Shown piece by piece: positions 10,520 to 61,420 of a stretch of DNA of 64,000 bases. Position 1 is the first letter of the stretch; the number at the start of each line of letters is the position of its first letter. The position numbers were made by a program, and so were the translations under genes. The DNA comes from Zhongshania aliphaticivorans (lineage in GTDB: Bacteria; Pseudomonadota; Gammaproteobacteria; Pseudomonadales; Spongiibacteraceae), in the NCBI RefSeq assembly GCF_001586255.1, contig NZ_CP014544.1, positions 124,001 through 188,000 on the forward strand, in the 5' to 3' direction. Under the pieces are notes generated by a model. The model did not search any database and had not been told where the DNA came from. It saw nothing but the letters and a program-made list of their open reading frames with translations.

Positions 10520-11240
10520 GGATAGGCTCCTGCCTCCGCAGGAGCGACGATTTAGTCGTAATTCAGCATGCCCTGAAAATATCGTCTTACCTGCGCAGGC
10601 AGGTATCCATGTGAGCGACAGCGAATGCCCCTGCATCAGACATCAGACTTGTTTCTCCCGTTACTTGCTGCAGTGCTCCGCTGAAGGAAGTTGGGTGCCA
10701 GCATCTAACTAGTACTTCGTTGTGGGGATAGGCTCCTGCCTCCGCAGGAGCGACGATTTAGAAGTATTCCACTCGGGCTGAGAGTGTCGTCTTACCTGCG
10801 CAGGCAGGTAAGCATATGAGCTTAGCGAATGCCCCTGCGTCAGACCTCAGACCTGCTTTTCCCATTACTTGCTGCAGTGCTCCGCTGAAGGAAGTTGGGT
10901 GCCAGCATCTAACTAGTACTTCGTTGTGGGGATAGGCTCCTGCCTCCGCAGGAGCGACGATTTAGTCGTATTTCAGCATGCCCTGAAAATATCGTCTTAC
11001 CTGCGCAGGCAGGCAAGCATATGAGCGTAGCGAATGCCCCTGCGTCAGACATCCGACGTCAGACCTCAGGCCAGTTTTTCCCGTTGCTTGCTGCAGTGCT
11101 CCGCTGAAGGAAGTTGGGTGCCAGCATCTAACTAGTACTTCGTTGTGGGGATAGGCTCCTGCCTCCGCAGGAGCGACGATTTAGAAGTATTCCACTCTGG
11201 CTGAAAGTGTCGTCTTACCTGCGCAGGCAGGTAACCATAT
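10520..11240. repeat. four tandem ~200-bp repeats, non-coding
   Basis: The block GATAGGCTCCTGCCTCCGCA recurs at 10521, 10727, 10931 and 11150 (spacings 206, 204 and 219 bp). Each copy is followed by GGAGCGACGATTTAG, then the palindrome CCTGCGCAGGCAGG, then GCTGCAGTGCTCCGCTGAAG. Two spacer versions alternate (TCGTATTTCAGCATGCCC in copies 1 and 3, AAGTATTCCACTC in 2 and 4), pointing to duplication of a two-copy unit. No gene is supported in 10451-11419; the rest of the gap shows nothing clear. Confidence 0.85.
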
Positions 11241-11419
11241 GAGCGACAGCGAATGCTTTTAGCGAGGACTGTCTGAGCCGAAGACGAGTTTCGCAGTGAT
11301 GCCGTTGGTTTTTTTGAAAAAACAGCTTAACCGCTTTAGGCGCTGTCAGGCACCCGGAGGGTGGGGCCCTTAGTGCCGAGTAGCTAAGTCGCCCAGCGAG
11401 GAGGTGCCAAACGCTGAGC

Positions 11420-33783: not shown

Positions 33784-34245
33784 TTAAAGTTCGCCTCGGT
33801 AAATCATGGCCTCCTGTAAATGGGCGAGGCTAATAGCCTCAGCGCCAGCGAGGTCGGCAATACTGCGTGCGATCTTTTGCAAGCGGTGGTGGGCGCGGGC
33901 GCTCAGCCCGAGTTTTTGCTCTGCTTTGAGCATGAATTGCTTGCTGGGGGTGTCTAGCGCGCAAAACTGCCGCACCTGCGCGGCGCTGAGTTGGGCGTTG
34001 ATATTGCCGCTGCGCTGCAACTGGCGGTCGCGGGCCGCGCAAACTCGCTCGCGCACGGTGGCGCTGCTTTCCGCTAGGCCATCTTCCTGTAAAACCCCTG
34101 GCGGTAGGCGGGGCACGGTAATGCGTAAATCGATGCGGTCGAGTAGCGGCCCAGATAGCTTGCCCCGATAGCGCTGGATTTGGTCGGGGGTGCAGCGGCA
34201 GTCCTTGCCGCTGTCGCCATCAAAACCGCAGGGGCATGGATTCAT
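33784..34245 (-). pseudogene. comM: comM 3' fragment (split by island)
   Basis: 153 residues from MNPCPCGFDGDSGKDC to the stop, equal to the C-terminal third of the Mg-chelatase-like AAA+ helicase ComM/YifB (sensor motifs and the C-terminal lid YRGKLSGPLLDRIDLR). Upstream of MNP the + strand still encodes Q-L-I-A-A in frame before similarity stops at 34262. The 5' part lies 7.3 kb away at 41575-42578. Joined, the two pieces give an unbroken 493-aa protein. ComM normally speeds branch migration during natural transformation, so that function is probably lost here. Confidence 0.93.
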
Positions 34246-34250
34246 CGCCG

Positions 34251-34275
34251 CTATTAATTGACTATGTGCTAAGAT
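34251..34275. other. island left attachment junction
   Basis: comM sequence ends and island sequence begins at TGA 34259-34261 (TCA on the comM strand). The same trinucleotide ends the island at 41572-41574. Removing 34262-41574 restores the comM codons for F-Q-L-I-A-A-M. The shared TCA is the likely exchange core. Confidence 0.85.
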
Positions 34276-34305
34276 TATATGAATAACTTTTATAGATACT
34301 TACTT

Positions 34306-36048
34306 ATGCCCAAAGCCATTCCTTATATAAGATTCTCTGCTGCACACCAAGGCGATGGCTCCACTGTTGCGAGACAGCAAGACCGAATAGCAGACTGGCT
34401 TTCCAAAAATGATGATTACTTCCTTCTGAAAGAAACCTTTCATGATTTGGCTGTTTCTGGCTTTAGTGGGAAGCACCTAGAAGACAATCAGGGTTTTGGC
34501 CGAATACTACAGGCCATTGAATCTGGTGATATTGGGTCTGGAGATTGTATTCTAGTTGAGGCGATCGACCGTATAGGCCGATTAGAGCCTATGGAGATGT
34601 TTACTCATATAAACAAAATCGTTAGTAATGGCGTTGATATAATTACATTAGAAGATAATCAGACATTCTCACACAAGACACTTAATTCAGGTCATGGTCA
34701 GCTATTTACCCTAGTAGGTAAAATTCAACAAGCACATGAGTACTCCAGTCGCCTTTCAAATAGAATTCGGAGCGCCTATTTAAAGAAAGTTGAAAGGGCA
34801 AGGAATGGACAAACTGACAATATCAGGCGTCATACGCCGTTTTGGCTTACTACATCAGGGAAATTAATCCCAGAAAACACGGAAGTTCTTAGAGAGTGTA
34901 TTGCCCTTTATATCAAAGGTTACGGGCATCGGAAGATAATTTTGACCTTAGTTGAAAAGCACCCAATTCTGAGTAATACGCACCCATCAACGTTGAAGCG
35001 ATGGTTTAAGAATCGAGCATTGATTGGTGAATGGGAGACGTCAGATGGTGAGGTTATACCTAATGTGTGTGAAAAGGCTGTCGATCTTGAGACATTTTAT
35101 GAGTTGCAGCGTCTTGCGAAGGCTAGGGCACGAAGACCCTCTCCAAGTGAATCGTATGAGCTTTCAGGTCTTTGCTATTGTAGTAATTGTGGTGCCCCCT
35201 ATCACTTTAGGAGGAAACGACACCTTAAAGAAATCATCATTTACGCAAATTGCTCTCAATATTTGAAGCGAGGTGCACACTATTGCGACAACAAACCCTC
35301 GTGGCCTTATGAAGTTCTGAAATTTATACATGACAACACTTATTCGTTACACCTAGCGTTAGCTGCTATGGATTTACAGCAGTCTAAGGATGCAAAGAGG
35401 CTCCAGTTGCTAATAGACGAAAAAGGTGCGATTGACGATAGATTGAAGAAGCTCATTGGGGTGTTAGAGGTAGCTCCTGATCAAGAGGTTTTAATTGTAA
35501 GGCTTAAAGAGTTAGACGGTCAGCAGAAGCAGCTATCAAAAGAAATTAACTACTTAGAGAAAGTGCTGTCAGGTGAGGAGTTGAACGCTTTAGACCTCGC
35601 GTCAGAGCCGGACTATAGGGGTAAGTTGCTAAGAGATGAGGGCGGGTTTCAGGTTTATGAAAATAATGATCCATACTTAAATAGCGTGAACTCAGATATT
35701 GATGCTATTGAGAGTGATCCTATTCATCTCAGAAGCTCTTTGAAGAGAAGAGGTTATGCAATCGAGTTAAATCAAAAGACCGCAAGTATTCGTGACGCTT
35801 ATCCAAGGGGTGAATTTACGCTTATAAAGCGATCCACTAGGCACAATTGTTACTTGGTGCGTTGGTATACACCGCCTTTTGAAATATTGTCTGCTGAAGA
35901 TGAAGAGACAAAATATCCGATTGAGGAGGATGAAAGGTTCTTTGCTATGAGGCGTAATTGTGGAGTGATAGCCGCCGCAAGCTCCTATGAAGAGCTGTTG
36001 GAAACGCTGGAATCTATAACGGAAGCATCAGTTATCTCAAAAGGATGA
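34306..36048 (+). CDS. large serine recombinase (integrase)
   Basis: About 580 aa. The resolvase domain begins IPYIRFSAAHQGDGSTVARQ with the catalytic serine in YIRFS and the arginine pattern of the family. VEAIDRIGRLEPMEMF and the helix E-type segment follow. A recombinase DNA-binding domain and a zinc-ribbon with CYCSNCGAPYHF...NCSQ..HYCDN (about residues 295-340 of the mature numbering) precede a coiled-coil region (KEINYLEKVLSG). The frame opens at an ATG at 34279, and the ATG at 34306 (MPKAIPYIRF) is the more usual start. It is the integrase of the island and sits 45 bp from the junction. Confidence 0.93.
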   Translation: MPKAIPYIRFSAAHQGDGSTVARQQDRIADWLSKNDDYFLLKETFHDLAVSGFSGKHLEDNQGFGRILQAIESGDIGSGDCILVEAIDRIGRLEPMEMFTHINKIVSNGVDIITLEDNQTFSHKTLNSGHGQLFTLVGKIQQAHEYSSRLSNRIRSAYLKKVERARNGQTDNIRRHTPFWLTTSGKLIPENTEVLRECIALYIKGYGHRKIILTLVEKHPILSNTHPSTLKRWFKNRALIGEWETSDGEVIPNVCEKAVDLETFYELQRLAKARARRPSPSESYELSGLCYCSNCGAPYHFRRKRHLKEIIIYANCSQYLKRGAHYCDNKPSWPYEVLKFIHDNTYSLHLALAAMDLQQSKDAKRLQLLIDEKGAIDDRLKKLIGVLEVAPDQEVLIVRLKELDGQQKQLSKEINYLEKVLSGEELNALDLASEPDYRGKLLRDEGGFQVYENNDPYLNSVNSDIDAIESDPIHLRSSLKRRGYAIELNQKTASIRDAYPRGEFTLIKRSTRHNCYLVRWYTPPFEILSAEDEETKYPIEEDERFFAMRRNCGVIAAASSYEELLETLESITEASVISKG

Positions 36049-36107
36049 AGGCAGAGTGCTTTAATGTATAAAAACTCGATCTAGTTTGATTTTGCGAGGA
36101 GTAGGGC

Positions 36108-36638
36108 ATGGCATTTATAAATGGACGTATTGATGGTGTATCTATTGTCGTGCCTGAAGACGGCGGGATAGTTATTCGATGTGAAGAGCCAGAGTTCAAT
36201 CACTTACAGATGTGGAACGTACTTTGGAATGGAGCTGAAAAACTTCGCTTTGCATGGATTATCAGGTCTGGTGGAAGCGATGCTTTAGCTATTGATATTG
36301 GTACATTGTTTGAGGATCAAGGGAACAACAGTAAAGAGTTTCAACGGTTTATTCGAAAGGATGATCATAAGTCCTATGCTTTTCTCTCATTTATCAAAGA
36401 TGAGTATGGTAGTGGTGGTGTAATAGAGGCCGTTATTTACTTAGAGGAGAATGTTTTTAAAACTGTCCTAGATCAATTTCAAAGTGCCCTACAAGCTAAT
36501 AATATGGTTTATTCAATATCGTTTCACACAACAGATATCTCTCCAATATCAGAAAGTATGCAGCATAAAATCCTAGGAAATCATTACATTGTAAATGGGG
36601 TGGCGTTCTCTTTTGGTCGGGGCAAGGTTGGTCACTAA
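36108..36638 (+). CDS. island protein of unknown function
   Basis: 176 aa, ATG with GAGGAG nine bases upstream, 59 bp after the recombinase. No signal peptide or membrane segment. An alternating beta-strand pattern and several short acidic segments are visible, but I recognise no domain. It is probably co-transcribed with the serine recombinase, which suggests an accessory role (directionality or regulation), an inference from position only. Confidence 0.6.
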   Translation: MAFINGRIDGVSIVVPEDGGIVIRCEEPEFNHLQMWNVLWNGAEKLRFAWIIRSGGSDALAIDIGTLFEDQGNNSKEFQRFIRKDDHKSYAFLSFIKDEYGSGGVIEAVIYLEENVFKTVLDQFQSALQANNMVYSISFHTTDISPISESMQHKILGNHYIVNGVAFSFGRGKVGH

Positions 36639-37080
36639 CAAGTGGCTGTGAAGTTAGCTTCTCATAGAGTGGGTTTGCTAGAATCTCATTAACGGGCAGT
36701 AAAAGGCTCCCGAGTGGCCATACAAGAGGATTTAAATAAACACCCTGCCGTAGGTATTAAAAAATAAAGATCGTTCAGTGGCGGTCTATCTAGAGGGCTT
36801 TAGTGGCATTTATTGGGTATATTCTAAATAGCACAATAAAATATCATATAAAACAGGTATCTTTTAAAATAAAATCAGCGTAATATTCAAATTGGGAAAG
36901 TCTTGCCCTGAAACATTTCGGGGTATGGAGTTTATGCTGAGTTTTCCACTGATCGCTATAGCTGTGGCTAATTAGCATTGTTTCTCATTGCTGTTTCTTG
37001 TGCGTATATCTTAGCTATCCTTAGTGTCTAAAGTATCTTCTCTTCAAAGCGTAAACCCTCAAGCTTGCTTGTGCATGTCT

Positions 37081-37319
37081 TGTATTGGTTATCCTCTTAA
37101 GCACTAGTACTGTATTGACTGCTTGTATTGACTGCTTGTATTGGCTCTAACCTTTAAGCCTGCTTAAGTAGGTACTGTATTAATTAGAGCTGTATAGAGT
37201 GCCGATAGGCGAAGATAGAAATAGATATTAATAAATATATAAGAATTAATACTGTATTCATTAACCCTTAAGTTTACTTAAAGCCTTACTTTTATGTGTG
37301 TAGTGTTAAGTTCACTTAA
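37081..37319. repeat. iteron-like direct repeats and TTAAG-N4-CTTAA palindromes (possible origin)
   Basis: Part of the 750-bp gap 36639-37391, upstream of the Rep-like gene. TGTATTG followed by G/A-C/T-T occurs at 37081, 37111, 37124 and 37137; the last three are a 13-bp tandem array (TGTATTGACTGCT). Three interrupted palindromes TTAAG-N4-CTTAA lie at 37154-37167, 37268-37281 and 37306-37319, with a degenerate copy at 37059. TACTGTATT also recurs at 37109, 37174 and 37251. Very A+T-rich sequence lies between. This is the layout of a replication origin or repressor-operator region. The first 440 bp of the gap show nothing clear. Confidence 0.6.
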
Positions 37320-37391
37320 TGATGGAGCTCTGTGGGAAGACCCTTCAAGAGGAAATGGATTAACTAATTTAACCAAGAGGTACAAAGCATA

Positions 37392-38090
37392 TTGGAAAAT
37401 AATTACACAATAGTAAAAGAGCTAACCTACAAAGGGTTACCAGTTAACAAGGGGAAGTTTAATAACTTAGACCTTTATGAAGAACCCTTAGAAGCTATAC
37501 ATAAAAGAATTATGTATGTGTCAGAAAAGTACACTAGGATTTATATATACAGATTTGATGTGACTCTTCCGGATTCAATTAACAAATCAGACATTGATGT
37601 GAATGTGAGTCTTTCTGAAGCTATCCAAAATACTGTTAAGCATCTCAAAGTAAAAACAAAGTCAAAAACCAATACATTCAGAAATCATAAGACAGTTAGT
37701 TACCTTTGGGTCAAAGAAGATGACACTGGTACAAAGCGAGAAGGTGAGAAAGAGAAGGGTATTCACTATCATGGATTCTTTGTGTTATCGGGTCACTCTG
37801 TTAGGTTTTCTGGTGAGAATGACTTTGAGTTGTACGCTATATTAAACAAGTACTGGAAAAATGCTTGTCTAAAGAACCATTCTGCTGAAGGGGGCTATGT
37901 GTCACCCTCTGAAGGGAATGATGTGCCAGTCTTTATAGACTTTGATGGGGTCACAAGAAAGCCCAAGGATAAGAGCCACCAAAAGAAGCTGGAGAAAGCC
38001 TTCTTTGCATTGTCATACTTGGCTAAGACTAATACCAAGGTGATCACCAAGGGAAAGAAGCTGTATAGCGGTAATCAGCTAAATTCTTAG
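37392..38090 (+). CDS. HUH-motif Rep-like protein (inovirus Gp2/YfjJ type)
   Basis: 232 aa. It carries KGIHYHGFFVLSG, with His125-Tyr126-His127 as an HUH-type metal pair, and later the segment FFALSYLAKT with Tyr209 as a possible nicking tyrosine. The same arrangement is seen in YagK/YfjJ and inovirus Gp2 proteins of prophages and satellites. The start is a TTG with AGAGGT eleven bases upstream; the first ATG would remove 40 residues. Placement directly behind iteron-like repeats suggests it initiates rolling-circle-type replication of the excised island. That function is inferred. Confidence 0.62.
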   Translation: MENNYTIVKELTYKGLPVNKGKFNNLDLYEEPLEAIHKRIMYVSEKYTRIYIYRFDVTLPDSINKSDIDVNVSLSEAIQNTVKHLKVKTKSKTNTFRNHKTVSYLWVKEDDTGTKREGEKEKGIHYHGFFVLSGHSVRFSGENDFELYAILNKYWKNACLKNHSAEGGYVSPSEGNDVPVFIDFDGVTRKPKDKSHQKKLEKAFFALSYLAKTNTKVITKGKKLYSGNQLNS

Positions 38091-38174
38091 CATTTTAGAA
38101 ACTATTCAAAATTTGACTAGATAGTGTAGTACTGTCTAGGTCTTAATCCAATTGAGTGGTAGGTGGGAATAGTA

Positions 38175-38573
38175 ATGAAACTTAAGGTATTTGCTTTGTT
38201 ATTGAGCCTATGCTCGTGCTTTGTTAATGCTGAGCCAACAGGTAGCGACCTGCTTGCTGAGTGCACGATGGCACTTAATGTTATTGATAATGAGGATGTT
38301 CCCGACTTTGGCATCACAAGTGCGACAAATAGTGGGATATGTTTCGGTCGGCTTTCTGCGTTTCGCGATATGAACTGGATGTATTCAGTTTCGTTGACAC
38401 CTGAGCAGCTTTTATATTGCGTTCCATATACGGCTCAGGTTCCGCAATTAATCAGAGTTGTTGTTAAATACTTGAAGGACAATCCCGATAAGCTACATAT
38501 CTACAGCAACCAGTTAGTCTTTCAGGCTCTCTATAAGGCTTTTCCTTGTGATGCGGATAATCAAAAAAGCTAA
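38175..38573 (+). CDS. exported Tai4/Rap1a-like protein
   Basis: 132 aa from ATG 38175, with signal peptide MKLKVFALLLSLCSCFVNA and cleavage after VNA. The mature part has the Rap1a/Tai pattern: SDLLAEC, then a Gly-Ile-Cys-Phe-Gly segment, CVPYTAQVPQLIRVVVKYL, NPDKLHIYSNQLVFQALYKAFPC. Four conserved cysteines fit two disulfides. Such proteins act in the periplasm, some as immunity proteins against type VI amidases. No toxin of that class is adjacent, so here it may be an orphan immunity gene or have another role. Confidence 0.72.
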   Translation: MKLKVFALLLSLCSCFVNAEPTGSDLLAECTMALNVIDNEDVPDFGITSATNSGICFGRLSAFRDMNWMYSVSLTPEQLLYCVPYTAQVPQLIRVVVKYLKDNPDKLHIYSNQLVFQALYKAFPCDADNQKS

Positions 38574-38704
38574 TAATTATAACCTTCTCTAATCCACAAA
38601 ATATAATAATGAGGATTAGCAAATCCTTGTCATTGCTGAAATCTCTCCTTTGGGTTACTATCTATTCCACGTAATGTATTAATTATCAGAATAAAGGAGA
38701 ATAG

Positions 38705-39262
38705 ATGATGGCTACAGTTGAAGCTGTTAAGACATTGGTCGAGGTTAAATATGTAGCCAATCTGCTTAATAAGCACAGAGGTGAGATTTATTCTGACTTA
38801 TGGGTGTTCGGTGTAAACGTAGGTCTACGTATTTCTGATTTACTTCCTATCACATTGGCTCAAGGTAAAACCGGAACTTTAGAGATTGTTGAGGGTAAGA
38901 CAGCCAAGAAAAGAAAGATCACCCTGAATGATACAGCTATGAGCATCGTTAATAAGCGGATCGTTAATAATCCAAGTCATGTGTACTTGTTTCAGGTTGA
39001 TAGCAACAGGGCTAGGAATAAGCCCCTAAGCAGATCAGCAGTATCTAAAGCCTTCGCTGAAGTTGGTGAAATGGTTGACGTTAAATTAGGTACTCACAGC
39101 ATGCGAAAGACCCTTGGATGGGTAATGCATAGCCAAGGAGCAAGTATTGAGCGTGTGTGTAAGGTCTTAAATCACTCGCACCCAGCAGTAACCATGAGAT
39201 ACATAGGTCTTACCGAGGCTGACACTCAAGCGGCTTACAGTGAGTTTGAGATTAAAGTCTAG
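38705..39262 (+). CDS. compact tyrosine recombinase
   Basis: 185 aa, ATG preceded by AAAGGAGA. All catalytic residues are visible: Arg42 in GLRISDLL, His131 and Arg134 in HSMRKT, His157 in LNHSHP and Tyr166 in MRYIG. Only the catalytic domain is present; the N-terminal core-binding (SAM-like) domain of ordinary integrases is absent, so it resembles short FimB/FimE-size recombinases. The island already has a serine integrase, so this enzyme may do internal inversion or dimer resolution. Confidence 0.88.
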   Translation: MMATVEAVKTLVEVKYVANLLNKHRGEIYSDLWVFGVNVGLRISDLLPITLAQGKTGTLEIVEGKTAKKRKITLNDTAMSIVNKRIVNNPSHVYLFQVDSNRARNKPLSRSAVSKAFAEVGEMVDVKLGTHSMRKTLGWVMHSQGASIERVCKVLNHSHPAVTMRYIGLTEADTQAAYSEFEIKV

Positions 39263-39317
39263 TGGTGACTATTAACTCTAAAGCTGGCAGCTTTCGCCAC
39301 CAGCTCAGAGCGCTCTC

Positions 39318-39527
39318 CTATGAAATAAAGAAGCCTAGGTAGTTAACGAGTGCAGCCCCGACGATCCAATCTAGGGCGGCAAAAGCTAACTGATGAAGTA
39401 TCGCCCACAGCTCATGTATGTATCGCATGATATCAATGTCGCTTCTAAGTACTTCAAGTAGCGTGCTGATCACGTTGCAAATACAGTCAATTATGTGGAA
39501 AGCTAACTCTGCCTTGAGTTTGGCCAT
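39318..39527 (-). CDS. small hydrophobic island protein
   Basis: 69 aa, ATG with GAGGT seven bases upstream, a good ribosome site. Amphipathic helix then hydrophobic stretch (LAFAALDWIVGAALVNYLGFFIS) that could insert in the membrane. No family recognised. It lies convergent to the tyrosine recombinase. Confidence 0.45.
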   Translation of the reverse strand: MAKLKAELAFHIIDCICNVISTLLEVLRSDIDIMRYIHELWAILHQLAFAALDWIVGAALVNYLGFFIS

Positions 39528-39557
39528 TATTTACCTCGTTGCGTTTGGCGCTAGTAA

Positions 39558-39800
39558 TCACCAAATTTCGGTGATAATGTAACGCGCAGGATATCCTCCA
39601 TTAGAGTCATTAACTTTCTGAGGGTTTGTGGACTCTTTTGGCGTTTGGGTCTTTTCTTTGGGAGAGGCCCGTCCTCCTTTTCTTTGGTGTTTCTCTTTTC
39701 GGTCGTTACTTACCCATAATACTTCTCCTTTGGTTGGCGTTGCTTTTGCTTCTTTGTGTGTCTTTATAACTAAAAATTCAAAAAGGTTATAAAAAATCAT
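39558..39800 (-). other. doubtful basic ORF
   Basis: An 80-codon frame, rich in Lys, Pro and Thr (KEKTQTPKES). An AAGGAG sits before a tiny out-of-frame ATG-GGT-AAG-TAA, not before this frame. Low-complexity composition and no proper start make it uncertain. Confidence 0.2.
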
Positions 39801-39869
39801 TTTTTAGAATAAAAAGGTATTATGCGTAAATATATTTGTGTAGTATATTGAAAAAGACAATTCTACATT

Positions 39870-39991
39870 CATTGATTTTAATTGATGGTAGCGGCGAACA
39901 CTAGGGAAATTTCTGTCTGTCGGAAGGATTAGTTCTTTCTGAGGTGTTAGTGGTGGGGCTTCTTGACGGTAAATTGTATTAAAATCAATGT
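39870..39991. repeat. 13-bp inverted repeat in an intergenic stretch
   Basis: CATTGATTTTAAT (39870-39882) and its exact reverse complement (39979-39991) enclose 96 bp that contain no ORF. The block lies in the 435-bp gap 39801-40235. A smaller hairpin CAATTC-TCTAG-GAATTG follows near 40093. A structured RNA, operator pair or remnant of a tiny inserted element are all possible. Confidence 0.45.
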
Positions 39992-40235
39992 GATAGGCTT
40001 GAGTTAAGACCTGCCCCCCTCAAGTCGAGCAGATATTTTAAAATTACACAGCCAATTACCCCAATATTTCGCTATAGGGTTAAACAAGTCTGCCAATTCT
40101 CTAGGAATTGTCGTGTAGGGTCTGGAGTTTAACTACAAATTAAATCTAAAAATATCAATATAAAACAATAAGTTATCAATTATTCTTGCAGCTAAATTCG
40201 TAGTATTTACAAGGTGCTGTGTATATTGCCGTCAA

Positions 40236-40433
40236 TCACTCTGGCTCAAACTCAACGTCTGGCAGTGGGATATTGGCTAATGAGCCATCAAGTAATTCAG
40301 TTCTCATTATGGCTACATCATCTGGAGCTTTGATAGAAATTACAGCGCTACCTTTACTGGCTCGCGTGAGAGTAACAACAATATCGTCACCAATATAAAA
40401 TGATTGTCCGTCTTTGCGGGTAATTGAGAGCAT
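40236..40433 (-). CDS. CsrA/RsmA-family post-transcriptional regulator
   Basis: 65 aa from ATG 40433, with AGGGAA upstream. The sequence MLSITRKDGQSFYIGDDIVV continues as a CsrA beta-barrel to APDDVAIMRTELL. RNA-binding Arg6 and Arg44 are in place, residue 7 is Lys rather than Arg, and the tail (NIPLPDVEFEPE) is an acidic extension. CsrA dimers bind GGA motifs in mRNA leaders. It starts 27 bp after the secreted nuclease gene on the same strand, an apparent operon behind a LexA box. Presence on a mobile island suggests control of island or host mRNAs. Confidence 0.85.
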   Translation of the reverse strand: MLSITRKDGQSFYIGDDIVVTLTRASKGSAVISIKAPDDVAIMRTELLDGSLANIPLPDVEFEPE

Positions 40434-40459
40434 GTCCGTTGCTTCCCTATCAAGTGCCC

Positions 40460-41149
40460 TTATAGGCAATTAGTTTTCATGTCATTTAGTTTAGCCTTCT
40501 CTGGGGCATTCAGGCCAAGGCTATATTTATTTATACCATGCACCCAGCGTTTTAGGTATTCACAATGGTACTGGGTATTTGGAGGCATCCAATCAAGTAT
40601 GCCTTTAGAGCCTTTTTGCTGATTAATCCGATCATGTACGGCCAATAAGTTTTCAGGATCATTGGCGAATTGTTGTTTCTTAGGCTTTGACCAATTAGCA
40701 GCACCATGTTGATGTGCCCACTTAAGAGGAATTATGTGGTCAATGTCGATTTCACTAGCTCTTTTGAGCTCTTTTCCGCTATATGGGTCAATCCATAATC
40801 CAGAGGATACATAGCAGCCATTAGGTGAGAGTTTCGGTGGTGTCAGTGATGATAGAGCTAATATTTCATGTCTAGTATTCATACAATCACCGTCATCATC
40901 TGACCAATGAGGGTAATCGCTTCTGTTGTATATTTGGCTATATGCTCGGCCTTCTTTCTGGGCTTCTTGGATGGCTCTGTGGGCTTTAGAGTCGCCCTCT
41001 GGGCAATCTTCTTGAAAGCACTCGTTATGTCCTATCTTTTGGCCTTGATGCTCGTCAGGGCTGATTAAGGAGCTGCCATCGGCATATCCCAAGAGAGGTG
41101 CAAGCATTAACCAAAGGGCTAATTGTAGGGCTGTTATTTGATGTCGCAA
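40460..41149 (-). CDS. secreted HNH nuclease, DUF1524/GmrSD-C-type
   Basis: About 229 aa. Signal peptide with hydrophobic ALQLALWLMLAPLLGYA. The mature protein has the exported nuclease motifs WSDDDGDCMNTRHEIL, then GLWIDPYSGKEL, DIDHIIPLKWAHQHGAANWS (catalytic DIDH), and FANDPENLLAVHDRINQQKGSKG. Two start codons are possible: GTG at 41158, or TTG at 41149, which has GGTGGG five bases upstream. It lies first in an operon with the CsrA homologue and 27-36 bp from a LexA box, so SOS induction is likely. No immunity gene can be assigned, since the enzyme would be exported. Confidence 0.85.
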   Translation of the reverse strand: MRHQITALQLALWLMLAPLLGYADGSSLISPDEHQGQKIGHNECFQEDCPEGDSKAHRAIQEAQKEGRAYSQIYNRSDYPHWSDDDGDCMNTRHEILALSSLTPPKLSPNGCYVSSGLWIDPYSGKELKRASEIDIDHIIPLKWAHQHGAANWSKPKKQQFANDPENLLAVHDRINQQKGSKGILDWMPPNTQYHCEYLKRWVHGINKYSLGLNAPEKAKLNDMKTNCL

Positions 41150-41182
41150 TTTTCCCACCTTTGTATATTGAAACCAAGTAAA

Positions 41183-41202
41183 TACTGTATAAATATACAG
41201 CC
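41183..41202. promoter_or_regulatory. LexA (SOS) box
   Basis: TACTGTATAAATATACAGCC matches the gammaproteobacterial LexA consensus (CTGT-N8-ACAG core at 41185-41200, A+T-only spacer, TA before it). It lies 27 bp before the GTG and 36 bp before the TTG start of the nuclease-csrA operon, and just ahead of the divergent small gene, so it could control both. Confidence 0.85.
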
Positions 41203-41236
41203 AATGATTTCTCTAAGATACCAATTTAACGCTTGT

Positions 41237-41521
41237 ATGGCGACACTCGAAGAAGGCAAAGAGCCAAGGTTTAACGTCGTGCCAGTAAAGCTCAAGAATG
41301 GCGACTACAGGAGGGTTAAGTGGTTAGGCTACATCGACCTATGTGATGCACAAAACCTTGCTAATGCTAAGCCTGTGAAGCTTCTTGTGGCGTCATATAG
41401 TGTGTCTGTATCTCCATACCCTAAGTGGATACACCTCAAAGATGGAGAGGCTATTCAGGGGTGTTTAACTGTTAATGGTGTGTATTGCATTGCCGAGGGT
41501 GGTTCTCCAAAAGTGATATAA
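41237..41521 (+). CDS. small island protein of unknown function
   Basis: About 94 aa from ATG 41237 (MATLEEGKEPRFNVV); an in-frame ATG at 41204 lies 4 bp behind the LexA box and gives 105 aa. Beta-rich, no signal peptide, no recognised family. It is divergent from the nuclease gene across the LexA box. Neither start has a good ribosome site, which lowers confidence. The product ends about 50 bp before the right end of the island. Confidence 0.45.
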   Translation: MATLEEGKEPRFNVVPVKLKNGDYRRVKWLGYIDLCDAQNLANAKPVKLLVASYSVSVSPYPKWIHLKDGEAIQGCLTVNGVYCIAEGGSPKVI

Positions 41522-41555
41522 AACAACAGTTTAAATGTGTTTAAGTTATTCATTG

Positions 41556-42578
41556 TTAGTGTGCATTTATCTGAAATCGAGCCGGGAAGGTTAATTGTTG
41601 GGTTGCTCTGGAGATGGTTACCTCCCCAGATTCGATGGGTTCGCGCAGTACTTCCAGTACTTTGCGGGGGTATTCGGGCAGCTCATCTAAAAATAATACG
41701 CCGTGATGGGCCAAGGAAATTTCACCGGGACGCGGATAGCTGCCACCGCCAACCAGCGCCACGCCCGAGGCGGTGTGGTGGGGCGCGCGAAAAGGCCGGT
41801 TTAGCCGCAGTGGCAGTCCGGCGACCGACTGCACAGTCGCAATTTCTAAACGCTCAGTTTCGTTTAAGGGCGGCAAAATACCTGGTAGGCGATTGGCAAG
41901 TAAGGTTTTTCCTGTACCAGGTGGGCCGCTAAGTAAAAGCGAATGACCTCCCGCCGCGGCGATTTCCAGTGCCCGTTTGGCGCCCACTTGGCCCCGCACT
42001 TCGCTGAGGTCGGGATAGTGCTCGGCCAATTCCGCGGAATCGTCGGTGCTGGCATAGGGCAGGGCTTGCTGGCCGTGAAGGTGGGCAACTACCGCGAGCA
42101 AGGAGTGGGCCTCGCGAATATCGCTGGTGTCGAGAATACTGGCAAGGCCAGCGTTGGCGGCGGGCAGTATCAGGCTGTGCCCCGCCTCTCCAGCTTGCAC
42201 AGCAGCGGGCAGCGCGGCATCTACCGCGCGCAATTCACCGCTCAGCCCAAGTTCGCCAATCAGTTCGCAATTGGCCAGTGGTGCGGTCGGCAATTGCCCA
42301 GAGGCGACCAAGATTCCGATGGCGATAGGCAAGTCGAAACGGCCGCCTTCTTTGGGTAAGTCGGCGGGGGCAAGGTTAACGGTGATACGACTAACCGGAA
42401 ATTCAAAGCGTGAGTTAACGAGGGCCGAGCGCACTCGGTCGCGGCTTTCGCGCACGCTGGCCTCGGGCAAGCCAACAATATTAAAGGCCGGTAGACCTCC
42501 AGATAAATGGACTTCTACGGTGACCAGTGGCGCGTGCACGCCGAGCTTGGCGCGGCTGTATACGGTAGCGAGGGGCAT
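41556..42578 (-). pseudogene. comM: comM 5' fragment (split by island)
   Basis: The first 336 residues of ComM, starting [13 protein letters not shown], with the N-terminal S5-like domain and the AAA+ Walker [18 protein letters not shown], up to FPARFQ. Four island-derived residues (INAH) and a stop follow. It lacks the C-terminal lid and part of the ATPase (arginine finger region), so it should be inactive. The partner fragment is at 33784-34245. Confidence 0.93.
41561..41585. other. island right attachment junction
   Basis: TGA 41572-41574 (TCA on the comM strand) marks where comM sequence resumes with CGAAATC... on the minus strand. The hybrid frame of the comM 5' piece reads on four island-encoded residues (INAH) to TAA at 41556. 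Confidence 0.85.
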
Positions 42579-42965: not shown

Positions 42966-43059
42966 ATGCTGGACGGGAGACGGGAGACGGGAGACGGGAG
43001 ACGCAAAGGCAAGTCGGGTTTAGATTTTATCTTAGCGTTTACCGTCTCCCGTCAAGCAT
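42966..43059. repeat. inverted-repeat element with GGGAGAC array (copy B)
   Basis: Left arm ATGCTGGACGGGAGACGG (42966-42983) and its inverted partner (43042-43059) flank ~58 bp. Inside the left arm the 7-bp unit GGGAGAC repeats so that GGG occurs at 42975, 42982, 42989 and 42996, an exact G3N4 x4 pattern able to form a G-quadruplex on the + strand. It is the second copy of the element at 12896-13026. It fills the ubiK-ureD gap upstream of the sigma-54 promoter; apart from that promoter the gap shows nothing else clear. Confidence 0.75.
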
Positions 43060-60794: not shown

Positions 60795-61420
60795 GCCGTC
60801 CTTCCTGTGAAGGCCGAGCACCGCCCCTGCGAAGGCAGGGGTCCATCTTTGCAACGGAATGTGGGCTTAGACGTTGGCGTAATTAAGCATTCGCTGCGCT
60901 GTACCTGGATACCTGCCTGCGCAGGTATGACAACAAATCAATCATTCGTCACTCCTGCGCAGGTATGACGCTGTTGATTTCGTCACTCCTGCGAAGGCCG
61001 ACCACCGCCCCTGCGAAGGCAGGGGTCCATCTTTGCAGCGGAATGTGGGCTTAGGCGTTGGTGTAATAAGTATTTGCTGCGCTCATATGGATCCCTGCCT
61101 GCGCAGGGATGACGCTGTTGATTTCGTCACTCCTGCGAAGGCCGAGCACCGCCCCTGCGAAGGCAGGGGTCCATCTTTGCAACGGAATGTGGGCTTATAC
61201 GTTGGCGTAATAAGCATTCGCTGCGCTCATATGGATCCCTGCCTGCGCAGGGATGACTTAGTAATGGAAGGGATAGGCGGTCACTCCTGCGAAGGCTGAA
61301 CGTTAATAGAGAATTAAATTGTCGTCACTCCTGCGAAGGCAGGAGTCCATCCCAGCGACGGAGCTTGGTTTTAAGTGTTAACTCAACAAGATCTTCGCAA
61401 CGCCCTCGTAGATAATTGTC
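60795..61420. repeat. palindromic CCTGCG-type repeat block with near-identical units
   Basis: AGGCCGAGCACCGCCCCTGC begins near 60811, 60995 (one mismatch) and 61139. Each unit continues through GAAGGCAGGGGTCCATCTTTG, CGGAATGTGGGCTTA, GCGCTCATATGGATCCCTGC and CTGCGCAGGGATGAC. The units are 184 and 144 bp apart and fill most of the ~1.1-kb gap before 61662. A partial unit follows to 61360. No gene is supported. Confidence 0.8.

What the first reader, a model, noticed from the sequence alone, without database searches (positions are those of the whole stretch)
34262..41574. Compact island that splits comM through a serine recombinase
The sequence shows two halves of comM with the exact missing residues restored if 34262-41574 is removed, a shared TCA at both ends, and a large serine recombinase 45 bp inside one end. 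comM is a known island target in Acinetobacter, but there through Tn7-like tni systems; this element uses a different machinery. The cargo mix (replication-like protein, CsrA, SOS-linked secreted nuclease, Tai4-like protein, second recombinase) in 7.3 kb does not match any element I know.
Basis: partly seen in the sequence, partly recalled or inferred. Interest (0 to 1): 0.75.

Follow-up and report, generated by a model that had tools for sequence, protein, structure and literature searches.

The report
Small mobile island inside comM
A 7.3 kb mobile DNA element has inserted itself, using a well-known type of DNA integrase, into the bacterial gene comM, a gene that such elements are already known to favour, so this is a neat new example rather than a new kind of thing.

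Summary
comM is split by a 7313 bp, 40% G+C segment; joining the flanks restores a 493-codon comM, 489/493 identical to a same-genus copy, and comM is unbroken in 17 of 17 other genomes of the genus. Related large serine recombinases (LSRs, 39-45% identical) sit at the same position of comM in Aestuariicella, Paraglaciecola, Vreelandella and Kushneria; the five form one clade. Over the five, only CA is shared by both junctions in every case, and the element ends are inverted arms centred on that CA, as expected of an LSR attP. So: a site-specific LSR integrative element.

LSR insertion into magnesium-chelatase (comM-type) genes is in print: 12.4% of predicted site-specific LSRs target that gene (PMC10083194), and sr1 phage WO does so in Wolbachia (PMC9203015). 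In this order 5 of 56 LSRs examined lie beside comM fragments.

Possibly new is the compact layout: LSR, G2P-like (HUH-type) protein, small recombinase, with a nuclease under an SOS-type box as cargo. Excision, replication and any effect on transformation are inferred, not shown.

The parts
41572..42578 (-). comM, N-terminal part (residues 1-336)
   Evidence: tblastn 98.5% to L018 comM residues 1-339; junction
33784..34261 (-). comM, C-terminal part (rest of the gene)
   Evidence: tblastn 98.1% to L018 comM; join gives 493 aa
34259..34260 (.). crossover dinucleotide TG (CA on comM strand), left junction
   Evidence: shared CA and symmetry centre
41572..41573 (.). crossover dinucleotide TG (CA on comM strand), right junction
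34279..34289 (+). attachment arm motif ATGAATAACTT, left end
   Evidence: inverted copy at the other end at the same distance from the core
41543..41553 (-). attachment arm motif, right end (inverted copy)
34306..36048 (+). large serine recombinase (580 aa from MPKAI)
36108..36638 (+). 176 aa protein of unknown family
   Evidence: no Pfam, NCBIfam or PADLOC match, PHROG only at E 0.034
37111..37143 (+). 13 bp tandem repeat, 2.5 copies, 250 bp before the replication-like gene; candidate origin repeats (inferred)
37392..38090 (+). G2P/YagK_YfjJ-like protein with HxH and SYxxK motifs, probable HUH nickase/replication initiator (TTG start)
   Evidence: PF11726; invariant motifs in 10 of 10 aligned proteins; structure inconclusive
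38163..38573 (+). Rap1a-family protein (start may be ATG 38175)
   Evidence: PF18602 1.5e-12
38705..39262 (+). small tyrosine recombinase, 185 aa
   Evidence: PF00589 7.5e-19, phrog_216 9.8e-36
39318..39527 (-). 69 aa hydrophobic ORF, no family
40236..40433 (-). CsrA-like regulator (homology starts at the ATG at 40433)
   Evidence: PF02599 1.1e-14, residues 13-61 of the listed ORF
40460..41158 (-). GmrSD_C/HNH nuclease with a signal-like N-terminus
   Evidence: PF07510 2.3e-14, HNH_4 7.6e-5
41185..41200 (.). SOS-type (LexA-like) box CTGTATAAATATACAG between the nuclease and the rightward ORF
41204..41521 (+). small ORF of unknown function (listed ORF starts at TTG 41138)
   Evidence: phrog_15882 at E 0.0037 only

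Best explanation
A compact integrative mobile element of the large serine recombinase class. Shown by sequence: its LSR belongs to a clade of five whose members sit at one position of comM, at the CA of the Gln codon in ...ARFQ|LIAAMNPCPCG, with element ends forming inverted arms centred on that CA. Inferred from knowledge of LSRs: the LSR joined a circular attP to the comM attB and, with a directionality factor not identified here, could excise the element and restore comM. Inferred, less sure: the excised circle is nicked and replicated by the G2P-like protein and its multimers resolved by the small recombinase, so it behaves like a small integrating plasmid or satellite; it has no recognised transfer or capsid gene and would need a helper phage, a conjugative element or transformation to move. 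Inferred, least sure: breaking comM lowers the recombination by which incoming DNA could delete the island, and the nuclease may add to this.
For: Exact empty site in the genus and intact joined comM. LSR domains. Same site in 5 elements of 5 genera. CA the only bases shared at every junction pair; arms match at 17-22 of 32 positions when centred on CA and at 3-14 for the other offsets tried, reached by 0-35 of 20000 shuffles. Both arms change together: in Kushneria both carry ATGAACCAC, in Paraglaciecola both lie one base closer. Site-A LSRs monophyletic, 100/99. G2P-like protein in 4 of the 5 site-A elements, two below and one well below the Pfam cut-off; a small recombinase in the same 4. 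Host keeps ComEC and DprA families. Lower G+C than flanks.
Against: No excised circle, replication or transfer was seen; no reads were available. No directionality factor was found. The G2P-like relative on a 4.3 kb plasmid stands beside a separate replication protein, so it may be a mobilisation nickase instead. Its AlphaFold model is poor (mean pLDDT 57), Foldseek gave nothing at E 0.001 and the best VIA-align Z, 6.7 to a parvovirus NS1 nuclease, ties with unrelated folds. Conserved codons alone would make comM a good attB without any benefit from breaking it. 51 of 56 LSRs examined in the order show no comM in the fetched flanks.
Confidence: 0.85

Rival explanations
1. A decayed prophage or phage relic: the integrase and a few genes survived, and the segment is no longer mobile.
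For: The Kushneria element at the same site carries portal, head, terminase and tape-measure proteins, so the same LSR clade serves phages. Long stretches without clear genes (about 36640-37390 and 39530-40235).
Against: LSR, arms and core are intact and symmetric; two relatives of similar size (about 6.7 and 7.6 kb, from the junctions) carry the same three functions with different cargo, which speaks for a compact element type rather than repeated decay.
Confidence: 0.2
2. A satellite of a helper phage (PLE-, PICI- or I55-like) that excises and travels only when the helper infects.
For: No own capsid or transfer genes recognised; no directionality factor found; PLE uses an LSR whose factor is phage-encoded (PMC6002521, passages); Gp2-bearing islands are moved by a jumbo phage (PMC12595487, passages).
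Against: No capsid-interference, terminase or other hallmark satellite gene found; no helper known; no Zot family, hence no inovirus helper of the usual kind, in the host genome.
Confidence: 0.3
3. comM is used only because its codons are conserved, and its loss gives the element nothing.
For: All sites seen lie in conserved protein motifs; most LSRs examined in the order use other places.
Against: LSR targets are enriched in DNA competence genes (PMC10083194, passages); two other comM positions are used by distant LSRs (near codon 30 in L041 and L045, near codon 214 in L046), and Tn6022 and Tsy use another one (PMC10293859, passages).
Confidence: 0.35

Closest known systems
LSR elements targeting the magnesium chelatase/ATP-dependent protease gene (Durrant et al. 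2022, PMC10083194; passages seen)
   Same: LSR integrates site-specifically in a comM-type gene; many diverse LSRs share the target
   Different: I could not see their tables, so whether this LSR clade and this exact site are among them is unknown; that their gene is ComM is my inference from the domain names (ComM = ChlI, Mg_chelatase, Mg_chelatase_C in PMC11472951)
sr1 phage WO in the Wolbachia magnesium chelatase gene (PMC9203015; passages seen)
   Same: LSR inside a magnesium chelatase gene, fragments flanking the element
   Different: A full prophage in an endosymbiont; exact site not compared here
Tn6022/AbaR (Tn7-like) and Tsy (tyrosine recombinase) elements in comM (PMC10293859; passages seen)
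   Same: Insertion in comM, same proposed advantage
   Different: TnsF-guided, at the Walker B region; no Tns genes here and a site 30 or more codons further on
I23/I44/I55 islands of Pseudomonas (PMC12595487; passages seen)
   Same: Integrase, inovirus Gp2-like gene, no recognised transfer genes, variable cargo
   Different: Tyrosine integrase beside tmRNA, AlpA, 23-55 kb, shown to be moved by a jumbo phage
PLE of Vibrio cholerae (PMC6002521; passages seen)
   Same: Compact island moved by an LSR without an own directionality factor found
   Different: Other site and genes; directed by phage ICP1 protein PexA

Membership tests
Site-specific LSR integrative element | Resolvase + Recombinase + zinc ribbon domains in one integrase | tested here: met
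   all three above the Pfam cut-off
Site-specific LSR integrative element | 2 bp crossover core with a symmetric attP | tested here: met
   (sequence only; 5 of 5 site-A elements)
Site-specific LSR integrative element | same target site used by relatives | tested here: met
   5 LSRs of one clade at one comM position
Site-specific LSR integrative element | integration and excision activity | not testable with these tools
   needs a recombination assay or reads
Tn6022/Tn7-like or Tsy comM element | TnsA/B/C/TniQ or TnsF proteins in the element | tested here: not met
   no such family in the ten island proteins scanned; TnsF has no model of its own in these libraries to my knowledge
Tn6022/Tn7-like or Tsy comM element | insertion at the Walker B region of comM | tested here: not met
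   site after residue 336, past FLDELPE
Inovirus (filamentous phage) | Zot/pI morphogenesis ATPase | tested here: not met
   no Zot in island proteins or in the whole genome (PF05707)
HUH nickase / rolling-circle initiator (the 37392-38090 protein) | HUH-type histidine motif and catalytic tyrosine | tested here: met
   HxH and SYxxK invariant in 10 of 10; the meaning of the motifs is recalled
HUH nickase / rolling-circle initiator (the 37392-38090 protein) | HUH fold | tested here: inconclusive
   poor model, weak matches
Phage satellite | induced and packaged by a helper phage | not testable with these tools
   no helper known
Integrative conjugative or mobilisable element | conjugation genes or a recognised relaxase | tested here: inconclusive
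   no such family found in the island proteins, but the HUH-like protein could itself serve as a nickase for mobilisation

The most novel reading that the evidence does not exclude
The comM site-A elements include a distinct family of minimal integrating rolling-circle replicons: one LSR clade that cuts comM at the same CA, paired with a G2P-like HUH initiator and a small resolvase (serine, or tyrosine here), about 7 kb, spread over several families of Gammaproteobacteria, while a prophage uses the same integrase clade. In this window the island would block natural transformation twice, by breaking comM and by an SOS-driven secreted nuclease, and so protect itself from being removed.
Probability: 0.25. 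Interest if true: 0.55.

Novelty: new member of a known kind. Interest (0 to 1): 0.3.

Why it matters
It adds an exactly mapped LSR, attP and attB, with four same-site relatives, to the known pattern that mobile elements land in comM. One island-bearing species among 18 genomes of a genus with otherwise intact comM makes the idea that elements break comM to escape removal by transformation directly testable. The comM-specific LSR clade with a defined CA core may also serve as an integration tool.

Tried and rejected
Searches for LSR with the name comM listed nothing relevant that I recognised; the match came only under 'magnesium chelatase' (then 97, 99). PMC4774983 does not contain the words serine or recombinase in the text searched, so the class of its comM integrase CF65_00446 was not settled. 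Searches for the LSR-HUH-rolling-circle combination (0 papers) and for the Gp2/YfjJ names (44 papers, 15 listed, 2 looked into) found no description of this layout at comM; supplementary tables were not available to me.

Considered and rejected: Tn7-like or Tsy element (other genes, other site); inovirus (no Zot); chance TCA repeat (arm symmetry and relatives); LSR start at 34279 (inside the attachment arm).

Results against or weak: the general pattern CTGTN8ACAG occurs once in the window where shuffles give 0.59 on average (39 of 100 shuffles have at least one), so only the stricter, genome-wide result carries weight; of its four places two precede SOS genes, the fourth has no clear SOS gene. 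In one search a narrow motif test missed 6 of 14 same-genus comM loci; it allowed only certain residues, and searches show continuous frames. One search did not list all rows; some other genomes have two comM matches that I did not follow. Of 57 PF07508 matches, 56 were examined: 5 beside comM, and 51 fetched with about 5 kb on each side (less at contig ends), none with comM; 1 partial match (G039:C38:122830) was not fetched. So 5 of 56 is a lower bound, and three of the five are one clade.
Full report
OBSERVATION. comM (minus strand) is divided into 41572-42578 and 33784-34261. A same-genus empty site reads ...ATTAATTGAAATCGAG...; the window reads ...ATTAATTGA|CTATG... at the left end and ...TTTATCTGA|AATCGAG... 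at the right. Joining the flanks gives 493 aa and a terminal stop, 489/493 identical to the L018 gene. In 17 of 17 other genomes of the genus the comM match lies in an open frame of 493-593 aa, against 363 aa here; 11 of 11 of the genus in a second sample align over residues 1 to 491-493. The element is 7313 bp, 39.9% G+C against 51.5%.

INTEGRASE AND SITE. The LSR has the three Pfam domains. A search of 293 genomes of the order gave 15 matches in 11 genomes; 5 of the 15 lie beside a comM fragment (own, G249, G257, G270, G251). A scan of the species genomes with the three-row alignment gave 11 loci. Two have the contig lengths of the G249 and G257 places and so name them as Aestuariicella albida and Kushneria phyllosphaerae; Vreelandella massiliensis and Paraglaciecola sp. 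have the same comM split; an uncultured Pseudoalteromonas has comM split near codon 30; the other six show no comM in the DNA held. Thus five elements share site A, between ...ARFQ and LIAAMNPCPCG or its equivalents.

CROSSOVER. In the window the shared bases are TCA; in Vreelandella only CA is common to both junctions. With CA as centre the two element ends are inverted copies: 18, 18, 19, 22 and 17 matches in 32 positions for window, Aestuariicella, Paraglaciecola, Vreelandella and Kushneria, with 3-14 for centres moved by up to 6; shuffles of the 60 bp arms reached the value 22, 14, 35, 0 and 7 times in 20000. The motif ATGAATAACTT starts 18 bases from CA on both sides in the window; in Kushneria both arms have ATGAACCAC at that distance, in Paraglaciecola both are one base closer. 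This is the anatomy of an LSR attP (general knowledge, recalled).

TREE. Of 24 LSRs compared, the five site-A ones form a clade with support 100/99. Their sister group of seven (Photobacterium, Shewanella, Cognaticolwellia, G211 and three IMG/VR contigs; 96/86) showed no comM in the DNA held. The LSRs at the other comM positions (L041, L045, L046) lie outside, on long branches of unsure place. comM has probably been reached by LSRs more than once.

BASE RATE. PF07508 gave 57 matches in 44 of 293 genomes. I examined 56: the five above and 51 fetched with about 5 kb on each side. None of the 51 has a comM fragment (repeated with a positive control that worked). So 5 of 56 at least, three of them from one clade.

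OTHER GENES. The 232 aa protein matches PF11726. Relatives in the Aestuariicella and Paraglaciecola elements score just or somewhat below the Pfam cut-offs of PF11726 and PF23343 (REP_ORF2-G2P); that of Pseudoalteromonas is above both; those of G270 and Vreelandella are below the cut-off of PF23343. HxH and SYxxK are invariant in ten aligned proteins, the pattern of HUH nickases (recalled). The AlphaFold model is poor and the fold search inconclusive. A 4268 bp Pseudomonas plasmid carries a relative beside a separate replication protein and a small recombinase. Small serine recombinases occur in the Aestuariicella, Paraglaciecola and Vreelandella elements; the window has a small tyrosine recombinase. 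Sizes worked out from the junctions and the coordinates: about 6.7 (Aestuariicella), 7.3 (window), 7.6 (Paraglaciecola), 11.6 (Vreelandella) and 14.8 kb (Kushneria). The Kushneria element has portal, head, terminase and tape-measure proteins; I did not look for a G2P-like protein in every Kushneria ORF. Of the eight island ORFs other than the LSR compared with the loci held, none but the G2P-like family was found in a site-A relative; the nuclease has a 43% relative near another LSR (L109) and the Rap1a-like protein relatives in two IMG/VR loci with LSRs.

SOS. CTGTATNNNNATACAG occurs at four places in the 4.2 Mb genome, its backwards control nowhere: at 41185 in the island; shortly before a recN (TIGR00634, over its cut-off); shortly before an imuA (NF033429, over its cut-off); and at a place next to a GGDEF/EAL gene that it does not precede. 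The island box lies between the nuclease and the rightward small ORF, not before the LSR. With two mismatches allowed, none was seen in L031 and L032, and only two-mismatch hits in L033 and L036, so it is a trait of this island, not of the site-A family.

MECHANISM. Shown: the insertion, its site, the LSR clade, the arms. Likely from family knowledge: LSR integration and, with an unidentified factor, excision. Moderately likely: rolling-circle replication of the excised form. Least sure: benefit from comM loss. PMC11472951 (passages) reports that ComM loss reduces transformation by two orders of magnitude for the heterologous DNA tested and discusses that this may hinder removal of elements; the host keeps the ComEC and DprA families, so competence is possible but unproven.

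KNOWN WORK. PMC10083194 (passages): magnesium chelatase/ATP-dependent protease genes are targeted by 12.4% of predicted site-specific LSRs, and competence genes are enriched. PMC11472951 gives the ComM domains as ChlI, Mg_chelatase and Mg_chelatase C, from which I infer that the two names mean the same family. PMC9203015 (passages): most sr1WO recombinases integrate in the Wolbachia magnesium chelatase gene. PMC4774983 (passages): elements in comM of several species and the conflict model. PMC10293859 (passages): Tn6022 and Tsy target comM at the Walker B region. PMC12595487 (passages): Gp2-bearing islands, one moved by a jumbo phage. PMC12016528 (passages): islands of Idiomarina with Gp2-like and CsrA genes. 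PMC6002521 (passages): PLE. PMC12424338 (whole text): island catalogue. I could not read supplementary tables, so I cannot say whether this clade is already catalogued.

VERDICT. A real, exactly mapped element of a known class: a new member of the LSR islands that use comM. Interest is modest; the compact layout and the possible double block on transformation are the parts worth following.

Noticed in passing
L032 1451-6336 (Kushneria phyllosphaerae, G257:C26): comM was hit twice: TnsA, a TnsB-like transposase, TniB and TniQ genes lie directly before a comM fragment of residues 271-336, then the LSR element follows. A Tn7-like element and an LSR prophage-like element share one comM.
   Followed up: partly
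L041 8522-16980 and L045 307-12243: Two distant LSRs have split comM near codon 30 at the same ATTGT-GG stretch, in an uncultured Pseudoalteromonas and in G270; L046 has an LSR beside comM from about codon 214, at the Walker A motif.
   Followed up: partly
L073 (G000:C1:715000-725000) and L072 (G063:C2:106000-116000): The host genome has a second LSR at 720134 with a nearly equal score to one in same-genus G063 (both 566 aa frames); no comM nearby.
   Followed up: no
window 42972-43003: Tandem GACGGGA heptamers (4.6 copies) just beyond the small gene upstream of comM; same-genus L020 has many copies of the same unit near its comM.
   Followed up: no
window 10838-11256 and 60954-61257: Two larger tandem repeats, 219 bp x 1.9 and 144 bp x 2.1.
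   Followed up: no
L033 16569-21201 (Vreelandella massiliensis): The same-site element carries a DNA methyltransferase-like protein and a HerA-like (DUF87) protein, perhaps a defence system, plus an IS66-like insertion (the last recalled from reading the ORFs).
   Followed up: no
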